Shown: piece after piece, positions 20,739 through 57,793 of the stretch | Layout: each line of letters begins with the position of its first letter | Position numbering within the stretch: the stretch's first letter is position 1 | Source: Bordetella genomosp. 1 | Lineage (GTDB): Bacteria > Pseudomonadota > Gammaproteobacteria > Burkholderiales > Burkholderiaceae_B | Reading direction: 5' to 3' | Length of the DNA: 64,000 nt | Assembly (NCBI RefSeq): GCF_002261335.1 | Contig: NZ_NEVL01000003.1 | Span: forward strand, 930,001-994,000 | Translations under genes and position numbers: made by a program | Notes under the pieces: model-generated | Seen by the model: the letters and a program-made list of their open reading frames with translations, nothing else | Told to the model about the DNA's origin: nothing | The model's database searches: none

Positions 20739-20795
20739 TCCGACCGCCGTTCAAGAAAGCGTTCCTGGCCTCCAAGCGCGTCGCCGCTCCCCAAA

Positions 20796-20956
20796 AAAGG
20801 AGTCAGACTGCATTTTCGTAAAGGTGTCAGACTGCATTTTTCGCCGTGCGGCGCCCGAGGCAAGAAAGCATAAAGGTGTCAGACTGCATTTTCCGGCCAC
20901 CCCGTGCGCTCGAGCGAGGTCGGCCATCCGGGAAATGCAGTCTGACACCTTTATGC
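20796..20956. repeat. Dispersed 21-bp repeat, cluster 1 (3 forward, 1 reverse)
   Basis: Four copies of A+AAGGTGTCAGACTGCATTTT: forward at 20796-20816 (GGAGTC variant), 20820-20840 and 20872-20892; reverse at 20932-20952. The last two form an inverted pair with longer homology: 20868-20896 and 20928-20956 are 29-bp arms with one mismatch around a 31-nt spacer. The cluster fills much of the gap between a LysR gene and a GNAT gene. The same unit recurs at 31.7 and 57.3-57.7 kb. Confidence 0.95.
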
Positions 20957-23774: not shown

Positions 23775-26700
23775 ATGAGCCAACAACATCAGGCGCACAC
23801 CGGTGCGACCGGCGCCGCACACCACCGCTGCTGTCAAGCCAGTCCCGCCACCCGCGCATCCGGGCGCCGACCACCCTACGCGCACGGCTTTGCGCTCGGG
23901 CTACTGCTCGCCACCTGCGGCACGGCGGCGAGCGCCCAGAGCGCCACACCGGCCGCCGCAGCGCCAAAGCCCTACGTCGAGCCCGGCAAGGCCGGCGATC
24001 CCGCCAGCTGGCGCACGCCCGACTTCGTCACCAACTGGGGGCTGGGCGTGATGAAGGCGGAGCATGCCTACGCCCGTGGCGCCATGGGCCAGGGGGTGAA
24101 GATAGGCCTGGTGGACTCGGGCGTGTTCAGCAGCCACGAAGCGTTCAGGGGCGGCCGTCTGCATCTGCTCAACGTGAAGGGCGTCTACGGCACCACGCAC
24201 CAGGTCTACACCGTCGAACGCGGCGTGCCCTTCAACCCGCCCAAGTTCCACGTAGCGGGCACGCCGTTCAACGTGTCTTCTGAATTCGACCCGCGCTACA
24301 ACGATTCGCATGGCACCGAGATGACGGCGCTTGCCGGCGGCGCGCGCCATGGCAAGACCATGCATGGCGTGGCGTTCAAGGCCGATCTGTACATGGCCAC
24401 GACCTCCGGCAGCGACAACAACCAGCTGCTGGGCTCGAACGACCTCGACTACAACTACTTCAAGGCCGCCTACGATGCACTCGGCAATGCAGGCGCGCGG
24501 ATCGTGAACAACAGCTATGGGCAGGCGCCCCGCGTCAAGCTCGAGGAAGAAACCGGCGACACGCGCCGGCCGGCTGCGGCGCTGTCCGATCTGCTGCGGG
24601 CCAATCGCAATTTCTGGTCCAACAGCGTGGGCGTCAACGATCTCGGCGTCCGCGACCGCAAGACATTCGTCGACGCGGCCGTCGACGCGCAACGCCAGTA
24701 CGGCTACGTGCAGGTCTTCTCGGCCATCAACCAGGACTACGCCTACAACCCCGCCATCGAAGCCGCACAACCGTTCTTCCACCCCGATCTCGAGGGCGGC
24801 TGGCTGGTTGCGGCCGCCTACGACCAATCGGGCGCATCGGTCTACAACCAGTGCGGCTATGCAAAATGGTCGTGCATGATGGGGGTATCCGGCATGTTGT
24901 CGGCGTCGGTCAAAGGGCCCACGGTCTACGACAACGCCAACGGCACCTCGGCATCGGCGCCCAACCTGTCGGGGGCCCTGGCGGTCGTCATGTCACGCTT
25001 TCCTTACCTGACCAATGCCCAGGCCCTGCAGGTGATGCTCTCCACCGGGCGTATCCAGGAAGCGTCTGCCACCCAAACCGGCGGGACCGGGAAACTCACC
25101 TATCGCTTTCTCACCCAGGTCCAGCAAAGCGCTTCGGAGATTCCCAACGAAATCGGCGGGTGGGGCCTGCCCGACCTGCAGCGTGCCATGGACGGTCCCA
25201 CGCAGCTGCTGGACCACATGGCCGTGCACCTCCCGAACGGCACCTCCGACACCTGGTCGAATCCGATCTCCGACGTGGCGCTGCAGGCACGCGAGGCCGA
25301 CGACAAGAAGGTCGTCGCTGCGATGCGCGCCCTGCTCGCCGGCGGCCAATGGAACATCGACAATCTGCGCGACATCTATTCCCAAGGATGGGTGCCCGTC
25401 GCCGACGACGCGCCGACCCGGTTCGACCACGAACTGCTCATCGAGCTGATCCGGAATGGAGGCAGTTTCACGCAGGCCGACCGCACGATGATTGGCGACC
25501 TGATCCGCGACTGGGATGCCGCCATCGCAAAGCGGGGTCTCGATCCGCTCACGGGCAAGACCTACGTCGGCAGCCTCGAAAAGCGAGGCGGCGGCGAGCT
25601 CACCTTGGCGGGTGCCAACACCTACCACGGCACCACGTGGGTGCGCGAGGGCGGATTGGTCATCGCCAAGACCGGCACCCTGGCCGGCGCCTCGGTGGTG
25701 GAAGGCCAAGGCACGCTCACCGTGGCGGGCAAGGTCGCAGACGTCAAGGTGAACCACGGTGGCACGCTGCTCGCGTCAGGCACCACGGGCGCGGTTCAGG
25801 TGAGCGGGGGCCGCGCCGCGATCGATGGCGCCAGCGGGACCGTCGTGGTCGCCGCCGGCGGGCTGGTGCAAGGCACCGGCACATTGGCCGCGCTGAATGC
25901 CGCGGCAGGCGGTCGCGTCGCCCCCGGCCATTCGGTCGGCACGCTCAAGGTGGCCGGCGACGCCACGTTCGCGCGCGGCGCCACGTATGCCGTCGAGCTG
26001 GCCCGGGACGGGCGCGGCGCCGACCTGCTGCAGGTCGCGGGCCAGGCCACGCTGCAAGGCGGCGCCCTGTCGGTGGAGCTCGAGCACACCGGCAGGCCAG
26101 TGACGGCGGCGGATCTGCAGGCCACGCTCGGCAAGCGCCAGACCGTGCTCACCGCCGCCCGCGGCATCAGCGGAAAATTCGCCACGGTGACATCACCCTA
26201 TCCGTTCCTCGGGGGCATTCCCACCTATGGCGCCACGTCGCTCGCCGTGGCGCTCGGGCGCAACGCCGTGCCGTTCGCCCAGGCGGCGGCCGACGGCAAC
26301 GGCCGCGCGGTCGGCACGGCGATGGAATCGCTGCCGCAAGCCAATGGCGCATATGTCGCCCTGCTGACGTCGCGCAGCACGGCCGAGGCGCGCACGCTGC
26401 TGCGCCAGTTCGACGGCAGCGTCTACGCCAACACCTACGCGATGCTGGCGGAGCAAAGCCGGCACGTGCGAGGCGCCGCGTTCGATCAGCTCGACGATGC
26501 CCAGCGCACGCCCGGGCCCGACGGCCGCGTGCGCATCTGGACGCGCTTGCTGGGCGCATGGTCGCGCGACCGCGCCGCCTCGGGCTACACCACCGACACC
26601 AGCGGCTTCCTGGCAGGCGCCGACACCCGGGTGCGCGAGGGCCTCCGTGTCGGCGCGCTGGCGGGCTACGGCCATCAGTCGCTGCGCATGCAGGGCGCGC

Positions 26701-27347
26701 CCGCATCGGCCCGCGTCGATACGCTGCATCTGGGCGCCTATGCCGGCTGGCAAATCGGCGGGCTCGCCCTGCGAGGTGGCCTGGCGGGAAGCTGGAGCCA
26801 GGGCAAGGTCCGGCGCGAGCTCGGCTACGGCGGCGCGAACCACACGGCACGCAACACGCTGTCGGCACGCACCTCGCAGGTTTTCGGTGAAGCCGCCTAT
26901 CGCGGAATGCCCGCGCACGCCATCCGGGTCGAGCCGTTCGGCCGGATCGCGTATGTCCGGGTCGACGGCGAGGGTCACACCGAATCGGGCGCCGACGCGG
27001 CGCTGCGGCTGGGTTCCAGCGGCAATCACACGGTGGTATCGACGCTGGGCCTGCGCCTGGGCCACGACGCCGTCGTGGGCGCCGCGCGGGTGCTGCGGCT
27101 CGACGCCCTGCTCGGCTGGCAGCACCGGCTCGCCGGCCGGGCAATGCGAACCCGCCTCTCGTTCGCGGCAGGCGGGCAGCCCTTCAACGCCGAGAGCGTG
27201 CCGTTGTCGGGCGATGCCGCCGTGCTGGGGCTGTCGGCGGCGGGCGGTTTGGGCAAGAACGGCATGCTCGCGGTGAGCTACAACGGCACGCTGGGCGGTC
27301 AGTATGCGGAGCACGCCGTAAGCGCCAACCTGCGCTGGGCGTTCTGA
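23775..27347 (+). CDS. Subtilisin-like autotransporter serine protease
   Basis: A 1190-residue type V secreted protein. A long basic N-terminus (RRPPYAHGFALGLLLATCGTAASAQ, cleavage near residue 54) is the signal peptide. The S8 protease domain covers about 85-470, with catalytic Asp114 (GLVDSGV), His179 (DSHGTEM) and Ser392 (GTSASAP); Asn246 in VNNSYGQ is the probable oxyanion residue, and Cys360/Cys367 could form a disulfide. A beta-helical passenger region with PATR-type glycine-rich repeats (LTLAGANTYHGTTWVREGGL onward) covers about 605-750. The outer-membrane barrel fills roughly the last 280 residues and ends in LRWAF with the usual terminal Phe. It resembles Bordetella SphB1-type maturation proteases. 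GGAGGG lies just upstream of the ATG. Confidence 0.93.
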   Translation: MSQQHQAHTGATGAAHHRCCQASPATRASGRRPPYAHGFALGLLLATCGTAASAQSATPAAAAPKPYVEPGKAGDPASWRTPDFVTNWGLGVMKAEHAYARGAMGQGVKIGLVDSGVFSSHEAFRGGRLHLLNVKGVYGTTHQVYTVERGVPFNPPKFHVAGTPFNVSSEFDPRYNDSHGTEMTALAGGARHGKTMHGVAFKADLYMATTSGSDNNQLLGSNDLDYNYFKAAYDALGNAGARIVNNSYGQAPRVKLEEETGDTRRPAAALSDLLRANRNFWSNSVGVNDLGVRDRKTFVDAAVDAQRQYGYVQVFSAINQDYAYNPAIEAAQPFFHPDLEGGWLVAAAYDQSGASVYNQCGYAKWSCMMGVSGMLSASVKGPTVYDNANGTSASAPNLSGALAVVMSRFPYLTNAQALQVMLSTGRIQEASATQTGGTGKLTYRFLTQVQQSASEIPNEIGGWGLPDLQRAMDGPTQLLDHMAVHLPNGTSDTWSNPISDVALQAREADDKKVVAAMRALLAGGQWNIDNLRDIYSQGWVPVADDAPTRFDHELLIELIRNGGSFTQADRTMIGDLIRDWDAAIAKRGLDPLTGKTYVGSLEKRGGGELTLAGANTYHGTTWVREGGLVIAKTGTLAGASVVEGQGTLTVAGKVADVKVNHGGTLLASGTTGAVQVSGGRAAIDGASGTVVVAAGGLVQGTGTLAALNAAAGGRVAPGHSVGTLKVAGDATFARGATYAVELARDGRGADLLQVAGQATLQGGALSVELEHTGRPVTAADLQATLGKRQTVLTAARGISGKFATVTSPYPFLGGIPTYGATSLAVALGRNAVPFAQAAADGNGRAVGTAMESLPQANGAYVALLTSRSTAEARTLLRQFDGSVYANTYAMLAEQSRHVRGAAFDQLDDAQRTPGPDGRVRIWTRLLGAWSRDRAASGYTTDTSGFLAGADTRVREGLRVGALAGYGHQSLRMQGAPASARVDTLHLGAYAGWQIGGLALRGGLAGSWSQGKVRRELGYGGANHTARNTLSARTSQVFGEAAYRGMPAHAIRVEPFGRIAYVRVDGEGHTESGADAALRLGSSGNHTVVSTLGLRLGHDAVVGAARVLRLDALLGWQHRLAGRAMRTRLSFAAGGQPFNAESVPLSGDAAVLGLSAAGGLGKNGMLAVSYNGTLGGQYAEHAVSANLRWAF

Positions 27348-27437: not shown

Positions 27438-28403
27438 TCAGGCCTGGCGCTTGCCCGCAACCGACTTCGGCGTGCGGCCGAAATGCCTGCTGAAGGCCGC
27501 GCTGAAACTCGCGAGATGCTGGTAGCCGACGCGGTAGGCGACGGTGGACACATGCAGCCCCGACTCCAGCAATTCCCACGCGCGACGCATCCGCACCTCC
27601 GTGAGCAAACGGTGCGGGCTCGTGCCGTGCAGTTGGCGGAACCCCTGCTTGAGCTTGCACTCGTTGATGCCGGCCTCGGCGCTCAGGTAGGCAATCGAGA
27701 GCGGCCGGTCGTAGTGCTGCAGGATCAGGTCGTGCGCGCGCTGCAGCCGGGCCCGGTCGTCCGGGCGCCAGCGCCCCGCCTGGGGCGAACGCAGGCGCAT
27801 CTGCTTGCATTGCTCGGACAGCAGGCTCAGCGCCGCGATGTGCAGGTCCATGCGCTCCACGCGCTCGGCCTCGCCCTCTTCGCGCCGGCGCCGGTCGTGC
27901 CGCAGCATGAGCGCGCGCGCCAGGTCGGCAACGCATGCGCTGGTGGTGTCGAAGAAAAGCGGGTCGGCGATGGCGGGCGTGTCGGTGTGCAGCACGTCTT
28001 CGCAGCCATAACCAGCCAGCAACTCCTCGTCGGCGATCACGCGCAGCTGGCGCACGTCTTCGTCGGCCAGGAAGCGCCGCTGGGCGCGGGCGTCGCCGAA
28101 CGCGGCCACGGTGGTGCGGCCGGCGAGAAACTCGAACCGCCCTCCCCGGCGTTCGACACACGAGGAACGCCCCTGCAGCGCCACCGTGATGGTCAGCGCC
28201 CTGCGGCCGCGCTCCACCACGCTCTCCTCGATCAGGTCGTGACGCGGGCGGTAGTGCGACACGGCGAGCGTCAGGCCGTCGGCGAGCGCGAGACTGTCGG
28301 TCGCGCCCTGGCCCAGCTCGGCCGGCAGGCGCGTCTGGCACCACCCGCCGGGATCCGGTGCGCGCGCAACGATCAGGTCGGCGGGACCAATGCGGTAGTT
28401 CAT
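27438..28403 (-). CDS. AraC-family regulator, PchR-like
   Basis: A 321-residue AraC-family protein. Two helix-turn-helix motifs lie in the C-terminal third (LSIAYLSAEAGINECKLKQG and VSTVAYRVGYQHLASFSAAF). The N-terminal region with LTITVALQGRSSCVERRG, then FLAGRTTVAAFG and VRQLRVIADEELLAGYG resembles the effector domain of PchR-type regulators, which activate siderophore genes when the siderophore is present. Start: ATG at 28403 with GAGGAGG upstream. It is divergent from a promoter that carries two 14-bp direct repeats and a Fur-like box, and is the obvious candidate to bind the repeats. A hairpin (27403-27411 with 27428-27436) follows the gene. Confidence 0.9.
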   Translation of the reverse strand: MNYRIGPADLIVARAPDPGGWCQTRLPAELGQGATDSLALADGLTLAVSHYRPRHDLIEESVVERGRRALTITVALQGRSSCVERRGGRFEFLAGRTTVAAFGDARAQRRFLADEDVRQLRVIADEELLAGYGCEDVLHTDTPAIADPLFFDTTSACVADLARALMLRHDRRRREEGEAERVERMDLHIAALSLLSEQCKQMRLRSPQAGRWRPDDRARLQRAHDLILQHYDRPLSIAYLSAEAGINECKLKQGFRQLHGTSPHRLLTEVRMRRAWELLESGLHVSTVAYRVGYQHLASFSAAFSRHFGRTPKSVAGKRQA

Positions 28404-28601: not shown

Positions 28602-28636
28602 CGCTCCCGATCGCCAAAGAATCGCTCCGGATCGCC
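28602..28636 (+). promoter_or_regulatory. Two direct repeats, probable AraC-type operator
   Basis: CGCTCCCGATCGCC (28602-28615) and CGCTCCGGATCGCC (28623-28636) differ at one base and start 21 bp apart, two turns of the helix. Direct repeats on one DNA face just upstream of a -35 box are the standard site of AraC-family activators. The divergent PchR-like gene is the likely source of the protein. Confidence 0.7.
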
Positions 28637-28645
28637 TAAATATCA

Positions 28646-28677
28646 AATGAAAATCATGCGCATCTGAAAATTATAGT
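28646..28677 (+). promoter_or_regulatory. Promoter with overlapping Fur-like box
   Basis: A -35 candidate TGAAAA (28649-28654) and a -10 candidate TATAGT (28672-28677) are spaced by 17 bp. AATGAAAATCATGCGC (28646-28661) matches the Fur core AATGATAATCATTATC at 12 of 16 positions and covers the -35 box. Iron repression is inferred from this match and from the PchR-like regulator gene. Confidence 0.5.
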
Positions 28678-28727
28678 GACCTCCATGCGCCGGCGCCTAT
28701 GCCGGGCGCCGCAACAGGAGGTATTTC

Positions 28728-28877
28728 ATGTCCATGCCGATTCCGGGTCGCCGCCTTGCCACCGGGTGGCAGCCGCACGCCCCGCTCGCGCTGCGGTCCG
28801 GCCAGTCCGCCGACGCCGACCGCGCCGACCTCGCCTGCGGTCGTTCCCGCCTCGCCGGAGGTCGTCATGCGCTTTGA
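28728..28877 (+). CDS. Small ORF of 49 codons with ideal ribosome-binding site; function unknown
   Basis: I do not recognise this peptide. AGGAGG (28716-28721) lies exactly 6 nt before the ATG, the best Shine-Dalgarno sequence in this region. The 49-residue product begins MSMPIPGRRLATGWQPHAPL, contains seven Arg, one Trp and one Cys (residue 37), no Lys and no Glu, and ends GGRHAL. It has no signal peptide or membrane helix. It overlaps the methyltransferase gene by 11 nt, so translation of the two is probably coupled. It is the first ORF after the Fur/AraC-type promoter. It may be a modified-peptide precursor or only a coupling leader; codon-position GC does not distinguish it from the other frames. 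Confidence 0.45.
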   Translation: MSMPIPGRRLATGWQPHAPLALRSGQSADADRADLACGRSRLAGGRHAL

Positions 28878-29910
28878 GTCGCGCCATCCATTGCAACCCT
28901 ATTGGGACCTCGTCGGTGCGCCGCTGCAGGTGCAAGCCCTGGAACAGGCGCTGACGCTCGGCCTGTTCGACCTGCTGCAGGCGCCGACCGCGCCCGCCCA
29001 GGTTGCCGAACGGTTGCAACTCGACCGCAGCGCGAGCGCGACGTGGCTGGAGTTGCTGTGGAGCATGGGGCTGCTGACGCGCCACGCGCCCCCGCAGCCC
29101 AGCGCCGCGCCAGAGTATGGCGTGAGCGCGGTCGCCGCGCGTTTCTTTCGCGAGGCGTCGAGCGAGAATTGCACGCAGGCATGGCTGTACCGGGCCAGGC
29201 TGCTGGGCCGTTTCGCCAGCCAGATGGAGTCCCTGCTGCGTGATGGCCATGATCCCGCCGCCGACATGGCGCACACGTCGGCGCCCGCAGGGTCGTGGGC
29301 GCAGGCGGCGCGGATGCAGATCGGGCAGGAGCAGCGCCACATCAGCGTACCGGCCGTGCTCGAGCGGCTGGCGTGCCTGCATGCCCTGCCCGACACGGGC
29401 CGGCTGCTGGACCTCGGCGGCGGCCCCGGCCATGTGGCGATCGCGCTGGCGCAGCGCCTCGCCGGTTGGCGCGGCACCGTCTGCGACGGGCCGGAGACGG
29501 CGGCGGTCGCCCAGGAGAACATCCAGCGCGCGGGGCTGGATACCCGCCTGGACACGCTGGGTTGCGACCTCAACCAGGACGGCTTCGGCAGCGGCTACGA
29601 CCTCGTCTGGTGCTCATCGGTGCTGCATTTCATGAAGGACCCGCACGCGCTGCTGCGCCGGATCTGCGAGTCGCTCGCGCCCGGCGGCGTCGCGCTGCTG
29701 GCGCACGCAGAGGTGCCCGACGATCCGGCCGTGGCCGCGGCGGTCATGCCCTTCTATACCTCTCTGAAGTTTCGCGGCAACTATCTGCCCGCCGCGGGCG
29801 AGGTGCCGGCGGCGATGACGCTGGCCGGCTTCGAGGGCGTACAGGCGCTGGGCCGGCTCGCCTTCCCGCTCGCACCGGTGTGGCTGTATTTGGGTCGCCG
29901 GCCGGCCTGA
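28867..29910 (+). CDS. SAM-dependent O-methyltransferase (acetylserotonin/hydroxyneurosporene type)
   Basis: A 347-residue methyltransferase of the class with an N-terminal winged-helix dimerisation domain (about 15-110) and a C-terminal Rossmann domain. The SAM-binding loop is LLDLGGGPGHVAIAL (about 179-193) and the motif after it is DLVWCSSVLHFMKDP. Members methylate hydroxyl groups of small aromatic or polyketide-like secondary metabolites. Start: ATG at 28867, with GGAGG 5 nt upstream, inside the 3' end of the small ORF. A longer in-frame start at 28699 lacks a ribosome-binding site and adds low-complexity sequence. No other biosynthetic gene is adjacent, so the substrate is unknown. Confidence 0.85.
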   Translation: MRFESRHPLQPYWDLVGAPLQVQALEQALTLGLFDLLQAPTAPAQVAERLQLDRSASATWLELLWSMGLLTRHAPPQPSAAPEYGVSAVAARFFREASSENCTQAWLYRARLLGRFASQMESLLRDGHDPAADMAHTSAPAGSWAQAARMQIGQEQRHISVPAVLERLACLHALPDTGRLLDLGGGPGHVAIALAQRLAGWRGTVCDGPETAAVAQENIQRAGLDTRLDTLGCDLNQDGFGSGYDLVWCSSVLHFMKDPHALLRRICESLAPGGVALLAHAEVPDDPAVAAAVMPFYTSLKFRGNYLPAAGEVPAAMTLAGFEGVQALGRLAFPLAPVWLYLGRRPA

Positions 29911-31634: not shown

Positions 31635-31683
31635 CACCGCGGCGCAGCGGCGCAGCGACATTGCGACGTCACGCCACTCAAAC

Positions 31684-31811
31684 AAAGGTGTCAGACTGCA
31701 TTTAAAACAAAGGTGTCAGACTGCATTTTTGACATAGCCCCCAGGGAGATCGCCTCACACCGGGCCAAGCGCCGCGATCCACGAGAAACAAAGGTGTCAG
31801 ACTGCATTTTT
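31684..31811. repeat. Dispersed 21-bp repeat, cluster 2 (3 forward)
   Basis: Three forward copies of the unit with core AAGGTGTCAGACTGCATTTT: 31684-31704 (last base A), 31709-31729 and 31790-31810. All three are preceded by AAAC or ACA, extending the match upstream. The second is followed by TTGACAT, the same tail as the copy at 57358-57378, and the third by TCGCCG, the same tail as the copy at 20820-20840. The copies occupy the 321-bp gap between the RclR-like gene and the phosphotransferase fusion gene. I see nothing else in that gap. Confidence 0.95.
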
Positions 31812-57229: not shown

Positions 57230-57257
57230 CTTGCCCCCCACATTCCCCCGACGCCCC

Positions 57258-57656
57258 AAAACAAAGGTGTCAGACTGCAATTTCAAACAAAGGTGTCAGA
57301 CTGCATTTTCTGGCCCTGGCAGGCCCGCCCAGGCCCGCGGCCCGCGGCGTCCAAAACAATGGTGTCAGACTTCATTTTTGACATTGCGCCGCCGCATCGC
57401 GGCGCGGCGCGAGGGGCCGCGACCGGCCCGGAACAAAGGTGTCAGACTGCATTTTTGCGAATCGCGCCGGCGCTGCCATGCCCCTGCCTGGCAGGCTGCC
57501 GCAGCGGCCTCGCGATTCGAGTTGGCGGCCTGCGGTCGCGAAAAATGCAGTCTGACACCTTTGTTTTTTGAGCAGCCGGGAGTCGGCGCCGGGCCCATGG
57601 TCAATAAATGCAGTCTGACACCTTTGTTTGAAATTGCAGTCTGACACCTTTGTTTT
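57258..57656. repeat. Perfect 51-bp inverted repeat inside repeat cluster 3
   Basis: 57258-57308 and the reverse complement of 57606-57656 are identical over 51 bases, including the 5-bp linker CAAAC between two units and the rare CAATTT unit variant. The arms enclose 297 bp that hold the other forward and reverse copies. Confidence 0.95.
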
Positions 57657-57691
57657 TGGCGTGATTGTTGGAAATGCAGTCTGACACCTTT
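57263..57691. repeat. Dispersed 21-bp repeat, cluster 3 (4 forward then 4 reverse)
   Basis: Forward copies: 57263-57283 (ends CAATTT), 57289-57309, 57358-57378 (AATGG and CTTCA variants), 57435-57455. Reverse copies: 57542-57562, 57605-57625, 57631-57651 (AATTG variant) and 57671-57691. All forward copies come first and all reverse copies follow. Most carry AAC just before the unit. The cluster fills most of the 619-bp gap between aroG and a VOC-family gene; apart from the aroG terminator I see no other feature there. Confidence 0.97.
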
Positions 57692-57793
57692 GTTTTTGGG
57701 AGGGGGTTGGTCGGGGGTGGTGCGCAGGCGGGTTTCGGTTTCTGGCTGGGGGACCTATCATCGGGTGGAAGCGTCCCACAGGAGAGTTTTCGA

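What the first reader, a model, noticed from the sequence alone, without database searches (positions are those of the whole stretch)
28602..29910. Possible iron-regulated small ORF plus O-methyltransferase locus
The promoter has two 14-bp direct repeats 21 bp apart, then a Fur-like site over the -35 box, spaced as in siderophore promoters activated by PchR-type AraC proteins; a PchR-like gene is divergent. Yet the operon contains only a 49-codon ORF and one methyltransferase: no synthetase, receptor or exporter. I know of no described system with this content. It may make or modify a small metal-related metabolite or peptide.
Basis: partly seen in the sequence, partly recalled or inferred. 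Interest (0 to 1): 0.7.

Follow-up and report, generated by a model that had tools for sequence, protein, structure and literature searches.

The report
Receptor-less PDTC-type regulator and methyltransferase pair
A two-gene locus, a regulator facing a methyltransferase gene, looks like a siderophore operon stripped of its import genes, and most likely switches on an enzyme that caps and so disarms a metal-grabbing compound made by other bacteria.

Summary
The anatomy is real: two direct repeats 21 bp apart, a Fur-like box, a divergent AraC-family gene, a 49-codon ORF and a methyltransferase. The operator is conserved: a motif learned from 54 relatives without the window scores 27.6 bits at 28612, and nothing else in the 64 kb exceeds 2.8.

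Relatives identify the locus. The two genes are homologues of pdtC and pdtP of the cluster for the siderophore PDTC (pyridine-2,6-dithiocarboxylic acid). Their commonest setting is AraC, TonB receptor, methyltransferase, permease, sometimes followed by the thiocarboxylate pathway. The window lacks receptor and permease; its genome has no close PdtK and no PdtJ. Of 57 loci, 11 are reduced in this way, by at least 4 label changes on well-supported branches. One reduced pair shows purifying selection.

The 49-codon ORF is not conserved; it is probably incidental or a receptor remnant.

Best reading: PdtC senses a thiocarboxylate chelator under low iron and induces PdtP, which S-methylates and disarms it. 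S-methylation is inferred, partly from published masses, not tested. New variant of a known kind.

The parts
27438..28403 (-). AraC-family regulator, PdtC homologue (321 aa), divergent from the methyltransferase
   Evidence: HTH_18 1.5e-21; 51% to the AraC of L049, 46-47% to L051 and L076; related AraC gene in 55 of 57 loci
28609..28643 (+). operator: direct repeats 28609-28622 and 28630-28643, 21 bp apart, with TCCGG between
   Evidence: held-out motif score 27.6 bits, best other place in 64 kb 2.8
28643..28666 (+). Fur-like region
   Evidence: first of all positions in the 64 kb with the relatives' motif (16.8 bits, next 15.8); 12 of 19 to the classic consensus, which is unremarkable
28672..28677 (+). 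TATAGT, -10-like hexamer; AAATGA...TATAGTGAC also in L076
28728..28877 (+). 49-codon ORF with strong Shine-Dalgarno; unconserved; starts where receptor genes start in relatives
28867..29910 (+). class I SAM methyltransferase, PdtP homologue (347 aa)
   Evidence: Methyltransf_12 1.5e-14 and Dimerisation 1.4e-7; 59% to L049 and L051; 66 of 69 family-conserved columns kept

Best explanation
The locus is an orphan pdtC-pdtP module: the regulator and methyltransferase of a PDTC-type siderophore operon, kept after loss of the receptor (pdtK) and permease (pdtE). Shown by sequence: homology, conserved operator, absence of K and E from the locus, no close PdtK and no PdtJ in the genome, the same reduction elsewhere. 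Inferred: PdtC binds an incoming thiocarboxylate chelator (PDTC or a relative) and, when Fur is off under low iron, activates the promoter; PdtP then moves a methyl group from SAM to the thiocarboxylate sulfur. The S-methyl thioester has lost its thiolate donor, so the chelator is disarmed inside the cell. In producers and importers the same enzyme would free metal from, or limit, PDTC; in the stripped version it would protect against PDTC made by neighbours.
For: Homology and gene order in register with the published order pdtCKPELMFGHIJON. Operator conserved and held-out tested. AraC and MTase kept together while receptor and permease hits are absent in 11 of 57 loci; solo label needs at least 4 changes on well-supported branches. 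No PdtK at 1e-30 in 6 solo genomes, only 28-30% paralogues in G000 and G272, controls positive; PdtJ absent in 8 of 8 tested, present in 2 of 2 controls. 66 of 69 conserved columns kept; omega 0.17 for the MTase of the solo pair L058-L059. P. kilonensis F113, which carries pdt genes, makes PDTC derivatives of m/z 198 and 228 while m/z 182, 196 and 212 were methanol artefacts; computed S-methyl thioesters are 198.022 and 228.015.
Against: No substrate, binding or expression was tested. The m/z values have isobaric isomers, and the authors' structure drawings were not seen. The superfamily holds O-, C- and S-methyltransferases, and the best structural relatives by sequence do not decide. No close relative of the window locus exists in the data to measure selection on it. 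Without its receptor the cell must take up the chelator another way. My loci were chosen by PdtP, so its presence in pdt clusters generally is not an unbiased count. Solo loci also decay: L066 holds fragments and L046 is frameshifted.
Confidence: 0.5

Rival explanations
1. Decaying remnant: a former xenosiderophore-uptake operon that lost its receptor and permease; regulator and methyltransferase are intact only because the loss is recent and do nothing useful now. The 49-codon ORF would be what is left of the receptor's start.
For: Nearest relatives L032, L049, L051, L076 all have receptor and permease; the ORF starts about 50 nt after TATAGT, as the receptor does in L049; other solo loci are visibly decaying (L046 frameshift, L066 fragments).
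Against: Both genes and operator intact; exactly the same two genes are kept in independent lineages; omega 0.17 and 0.22 for MTase and AraC in a solo pair, against 0.119-0.205 and 0.090-0.212 in 8 uptake pairs. No receptor sequence is detectable in the ORF.
Confidence: 0.27
2. PdtP processes a chelator that enters through another receptor, so that its metal is released for use: a nutritional rather than a defensive role. The candidate route is the AraC-linked TonB receptor and MFS pair on contig C6 of the same genome.
For: G000 C6 holds adjacent receptor and MFS paralogues, 30-31% and 33% to PdtK and PdtE; in uptake loci PdtP sits between receptor and permease genes.
Against: The C6 pair is no closer to PdtK than unrelated paralogues in control genomes (28-31%), has its own AraC gene (39% over 89 residues only) and no match to the operator pattern; six other solo genomes have no PdtK-like receptor at 1e-30.
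Confidence: 0.15
3. One reading: the locus makes or modifies a small peptide encoded by the 49-codon ORF.
For: Strong Shine-Dalgarno and overlap with the methyltransferase start; very weak similarity of the methyltransferase to the RiPP methyltransferase model ApyS, 20.4 bits against a cut-off of 400.
Against: No convincing homologue in 268 genomes, no counterpart in the 10 other solo loci, ambiguous coding score; the enzyme family travels with PDTC-type genes.
Confidence: 0.04

Closest known systems
pdt system for PDTC (published order pdtCKPELMFGHIJON in P. kilonensis F113; studied in P. stutzeri KC and P. putida DSM 3601)
   Same: homologous AraC regulator and methyltransferase, divergent, with direct-repeat operator and Fur-like box
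   Different: receptor and permease missing at the locus; biosynthesis absent as judged by PdtJ
Thioquinolobactin (qbs) cluster
   Same: same thiocarboxylate-making cassette type as pdt, so a possible alternative substrate
   Different: qbs genes were not compared directly; no thiocarboxylate genes at the window locus
S-methyltransferases that attenuate thiol metabolites: GtmA (gliotoxin; start of abstract of PMC5356443 in a listing) and DtpM (dithiolopyrrolones; role recalled)
   Same: proposed logic: methylate the sulfur of a metal-binding thiol compound; DtpM matches the profile at 55.2 bits
   Different: different substrate class (thiocarboxylate); no shared regulator; similarity is at superfamily level
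DnoP of P. aeruginosa (PMC11317636, abstract)
   Same: works like: a metal-starvation-induced enzyme detoxifying a foreign sulfur-containing antimicrobial
   Different: dithiol oxidase, zinc cue, no AraC-type chelator sensor
PchR-type pyochelin uptake (recalled)
   Same: siderophore-responsive AraC activator with Fur; the MFS of full loci is nearest the RhtX/FptX model (72.9 bits, cut-off 356)
   Different: methyltransferase in the uptake unit; different siderophore

Membership tests
pdt (PDTC) siderophore system | divergent PdtC-type AraC regulator with conserved operator | tested here: met
pdt (PDTC) siderophore system | PdtP methyltransferase homologue | tested here: met
   name by gene order
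pdt (PDTC) siderophore system | TonB receptor PdtK | tested here: not met
   none at the locus; genome best 30-31%
pdt (PDTC) siderophore system | inner-membrane permease PdtE | tested here: not met
   none at the locus; genome best 33%
pdt (PDTC) siderophore system | thiocarboxylate biosynthesis genes F-J | tested here: not met
   none at the locus; PdtJ absent from genome; F, G, H, I not searched genome-wide
pdt (PDTC) siderophore system | response to PDTC and iron | not testable with these tools
   needs expression data
thiol or thiocarboxylate S-methyltransferase | S-methylation of the substrate | not testable with these tools
   inferred from published masses
thiol or thiocarboxylate S-methyltransferase | class I SAM fold with conserved family residues | tested here: met
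RiPP or small-peptide locus | conserved precursor peptide beside the modifying enzyme | tested here: not met

The most novel reading that the evidence does not exclude
Bacteria repeatedly strip a siderophore operon down to its sensor and its methyltransferase and keep it as a dedicated two-gene defence that detects a neighbour's thiocarboxylate metallophore under low iron and destroys its metal-binding sulfur by S-methylation, which would make PdtP a thiocarboxylate S-methyltransferase.
Probability: 0.4. Interest if true: 0.68.

Novelty: new variant of a known kind. Interest (0 to 1): 0.5.

Why it matters
It gives the methyltransferase of the PDTC cluster, for which I found no tested role in the papers held, a concrete and testable job, and suggests that competition over metal chelators includes chemical disarming and not only piracy. 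Stand-alone regulator-enzyme pairs of this kind are hidden in annotation as 'AraC family regulator' plus 'class I SAM-dependent methyltransferase'.

Tried and rejected
Considered and rejected or left open: (1) the 49-codon ORF as a conserved peptide. (2) The ORF as a demonstrable receptor fragment: position fits, but alignments of the leader to 5 receptor regions were at shuffle level for L049, L051, L032 and L052 (87, 43, 40 and 124 of 200 shuffles as high); the one good match, L076 (1 of 200), is promoter, not ORF. (3) A pyochelin-type locus: the relatives' neighbours point to pdt. (4) A second operator site in the genome that might mark a displaced receptor: none. (5) Empty-site comparison in the genus: the end of the flanking autotransporter matches 1 of 15 genomes, the window's own, at 1e-40, so none was possible. 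(6) Telling S- from O-methylation by solved relatives: best profile matches SibL, DSYB and RedM do not settle it. (7) The classic Fur consensus alone: too weak. (8) The omega of L043 against L046 is meaningless because L046 is frameshifted; discarded. (9) One search used a wrongly guessed end of an interspersed repeat; one search repeats it correctly. (10) Paper searches found nothing; others gave the papers cited or nothing on PdtP or on stand-alone pdtC-pdtP pairs. The original pdt papers are not held or were seen only as references, so absence from print is known only for this library and these searches.

Full report
OBSERVATION. Pfam places the enzyme among class I SAM methyltransferases with the O-methyltransferase dimerisation domain, and gives the regulator the AraC DNA-binding domain; the 49-residue product matches no family. 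No NCBIfam model is met at its cut-off by either protein.

RELATIVES. Homologues of the methyltransferase at E <= 1e-40 occur in 33 of 268 genomes of the family, own included (34 places), and in 7 of 398 sampled across the phylum, own included; a pattern-based scan of genome contigs gave 17 loci and a plasmid search 3 records. 57 distinct loci remain, the window among them.

CONTEXT. A related AraC gene is hit in 55 of 57 loci; L052 and L053 have none in the stretch held. Classes with a 35% identity cut-off: AraC-receptor-MTase-MFS 26; the same plus biosynthesis genes 9; AraC-MTase-MFS plus biosynthesis 7; receptor-MTase-MFS plus biosynthesis 2; AraC-MTase-MFS 1; AraC-MTase alone 7 (window, L043, L046, L057, L058, L059, L066); and 5 whose AraC falls under the cut-off: L060 with receptor and MFS, and L077, L095, L096, L097 without either. 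So 11 of 57 loci show no receptor or permease hit in the stretch held; of these L046 is frameshifted, L066 is fragments, and L077, L096 and L097 are distant. The receptor belongs to the TonB-dependent siderophore type and the MFS protein is nearest the RhtX/FptX model, both below the curated cut-offs.

IDENTITY. In the Pseudomonas and Bisbaumannia clusters the permease is followed by a PigD-like and a PigE-like protein, ThiF-rhodanese, JAB peptidase, ThiS/MoaD, class III CoA-transferase, AMP ligase, acyl-CoA dehydrogenase and a second MFS (domains from L039, L036 and L085; order in L084, L085 and L092). P. kilonensis F113 is published with pdtCKPELMFGHIJON (PMC3570484, passages; PMC7415375, passages), and PMC1779556 (passages with Table 1 row 4a) gives F as E1-rhodanese, G as JAB, H as ThiS/MoaD, I as CaiB-like and J as AMP ligase. 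The two orders are in register, so the AraC gene is pdtC, the receptor pdtK, the methyltransferase pdtP and the permease pdtE. The F113 sequence itself was not compared. That K and E are the transporters is recalled; only the title of Leach and Lewis 2006 was seen.

OPERATOR. A 32-bp motif trained on 54 intergenic regions without the window has the consensus CGCATAnGAATnGATCCGGAnnGCATAnnAAT; the window scores 27.6 bits at 28612 against 2.8 for the best other place on either strand of the 64 kb. Among relatives, whose scores are training scores, L066 has no site (-12.6) and L077 (8.5) and L049 (10.6) are weak. The Fur-region motif (51 relatives; L066, L077 and L095 left out) ranks first in the window at the expected place, 16.8 bits against 15.8 for the next position; the classic consensus gives an unremarkable 12 of 19. 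A tight operator pattern has one match in the genome, so this regulator probably controls this locus only.

LOSS OF UPTAKE AND SYNTHESIS. The PdtK of G037 has no match at 1e-30 in six solo genomes (G006, G007, G038, G468, G497, G609) and only 30% and 28% paralogues in G000 and G272; the controls G022 and G041 give 90%, 83% and 57% matches besides paralogues of 28-31%. PdtJ, 70-79% identical between distant clusters, is absent at 1e-60 in 8 of 8 genomes tested (G000, G006, G007, G038, G092, G041, G272, G468) and present in both controls, G060 and G051. A PdtE query finds at best 33% in G000, beside the receptor paralogue on contig C6. F, G, H and I were not searched genome-wide.

HISTORY AND SELECTION. 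In a quick tree of 55 rows (L046 and L066 left out) the window methyltransferase lies in a set of 7 (SH-aLRT 99) with L032, L049, L051, L052, L053 and L076, all of which have receptor and permease. The solo label (9 rows) needs 6 changes, at least 4 forced by well-supported branches; the places of long branches such as L077 and L095 are unsure. The AraC tree also puts the window nearest L049, L076 and L051. The window enzyme keeps 66 of 69 columns conserved in at least 95% of 46 non-solo rows; other solos keep 67 (L043), 68 (L057, L058, L059), 62 (L095), 54 (L077), 56 (L096) and 58 (L097). The solo pair L058-L059 has omega 0.171 for the methyltransferase and 0.224 for AraC; eight uptake-uptake pairs span 0.119-0.205 and 0.090-0.212; three solo-uptake pairs reach 0.280 and 0.278. 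So in that pair the genes are maintained, at most slightly relaxed. dS is high (0.7-0.8) and the method simple (NG86). Nothing comparable can be measured for the window's own copy.

THE SMALL ORF. Its coding score is ambiguous: 16% of off-frame stretches score as high, 7% of real stretches as low, and one reverse frame scores higher (0.18 against 0.08 bits per codon). 444 of 2000 shuffles hold an ORF that long. The 10 other solo loci have AraC-methyltransferase gaps of 161-256 bp against 463 bp here; three of them hold unrelated short ORFs (L057, L077, L095). The ORF starts about 50 nt after TATAGT, as the receptor does in L049, so it may be the start of the lost receptor gene, but no similarity remains.

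CHEMISTRY. [quoted passage not shown] Extraction with other solvents showed m/z 198 and 228 to be real products and 182, 196 and 212 to be methanol artefacts (PMC7911646, passages). Computed [M+H]+ for 6-(S-methyl thiocarboxylate)-pyridine-2-carboxylic acid is 198.022 and for bis-S-methyl PDTC 228.015, and the artefact masses equal products with O-methyl groups. This points to S-methylation of PDTC in a strain with pdt genes, and PdtP is the only methyltransferase among the cluster proteins I annotated. Isomers are isobaric and the authors' structures were not seen, so this is inference. That an S-methyl thioester no longer chelates through sulfur is chemical reasoning.

CONCLUSION. Shown by sequence: a pdtC-pdtP pair with intact operator, receptor and permease gone, PdtJ absent, the same reduction elsewhere, purifying selection in one solo pair. 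Inferred: sensing of a thiocarboxylate chelator, iron repression, S-methylation, protection. In eight answered paper searches no listed paper is about a stand-alone pdtC-pdtP pair or a tested function of PdtP, but the original pdt papers are not in the library.

Noticed in passing
L084 12007-17198 and L085 12013-16966 (pdtL, pdtM positions): These pdt-cluster proteins are PigD-like (685 bits, below cut-off) and PigE-like (1249 bits on L036, above cut-off). PigD and PigE make alkyl pyrrolines (recalled), and F113 and P. putida DSM 3601 are reported to make 3,4-dihydro-5-methyl-4-alkyl-2H-pyrroles (PMC7415375, passages), so pdtL and pdtM may make these rather than PDTC; 9 loci have F or J hits but no PigD or PigE hit in the stretch held.
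   Followed up: partly
window 20795-20956, 31680-31811, 57252-57700: Interspersed repeat around AAATGCAGTCTGACACCTTTGTTT in three intergenic clusters, both orientations: 15 matches to a 17-mer with up to 3 mismatches, 0.07 expected; no exact 20-mer copy in the 118 loci fetched.
   Followed up: partly
L114 7059-11478 (own genome, contig C6): A second cassette: an AraC-family gene divergent from a TonB receptor and an MFS protein, 30-31% and 33% to PdtK and PdtE, without a methyltransferase hit in this genome beyond a 31% partial one elsewhere. Its siderophore is unknown.
   Followed up: partly
window 23775-27347: Subtilase autotransporter similar to EprS (716 bits, cut-off 1700); its C-terminal part matches only the window's own genome among 15 of the genus at 1e-40, so this flank is accessory as well.
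   Followed up: partly
L046 6001-7034 and L066 6657-8050: Two solo loci look decayed: the methyltransferase of Janthinobacterium sp. ROICE36 is frameshifted, and in G193 AraC and methyltransferase are fragments without an operator.
   Followed up: no
L077 7929-9924: A Pantoea sp. At-9b plasmid carries a distant AraC-methyltransferase pair whose enzyme has Y where the family has a conserved H (window H254), so it may act on something else.
   Followed up: no
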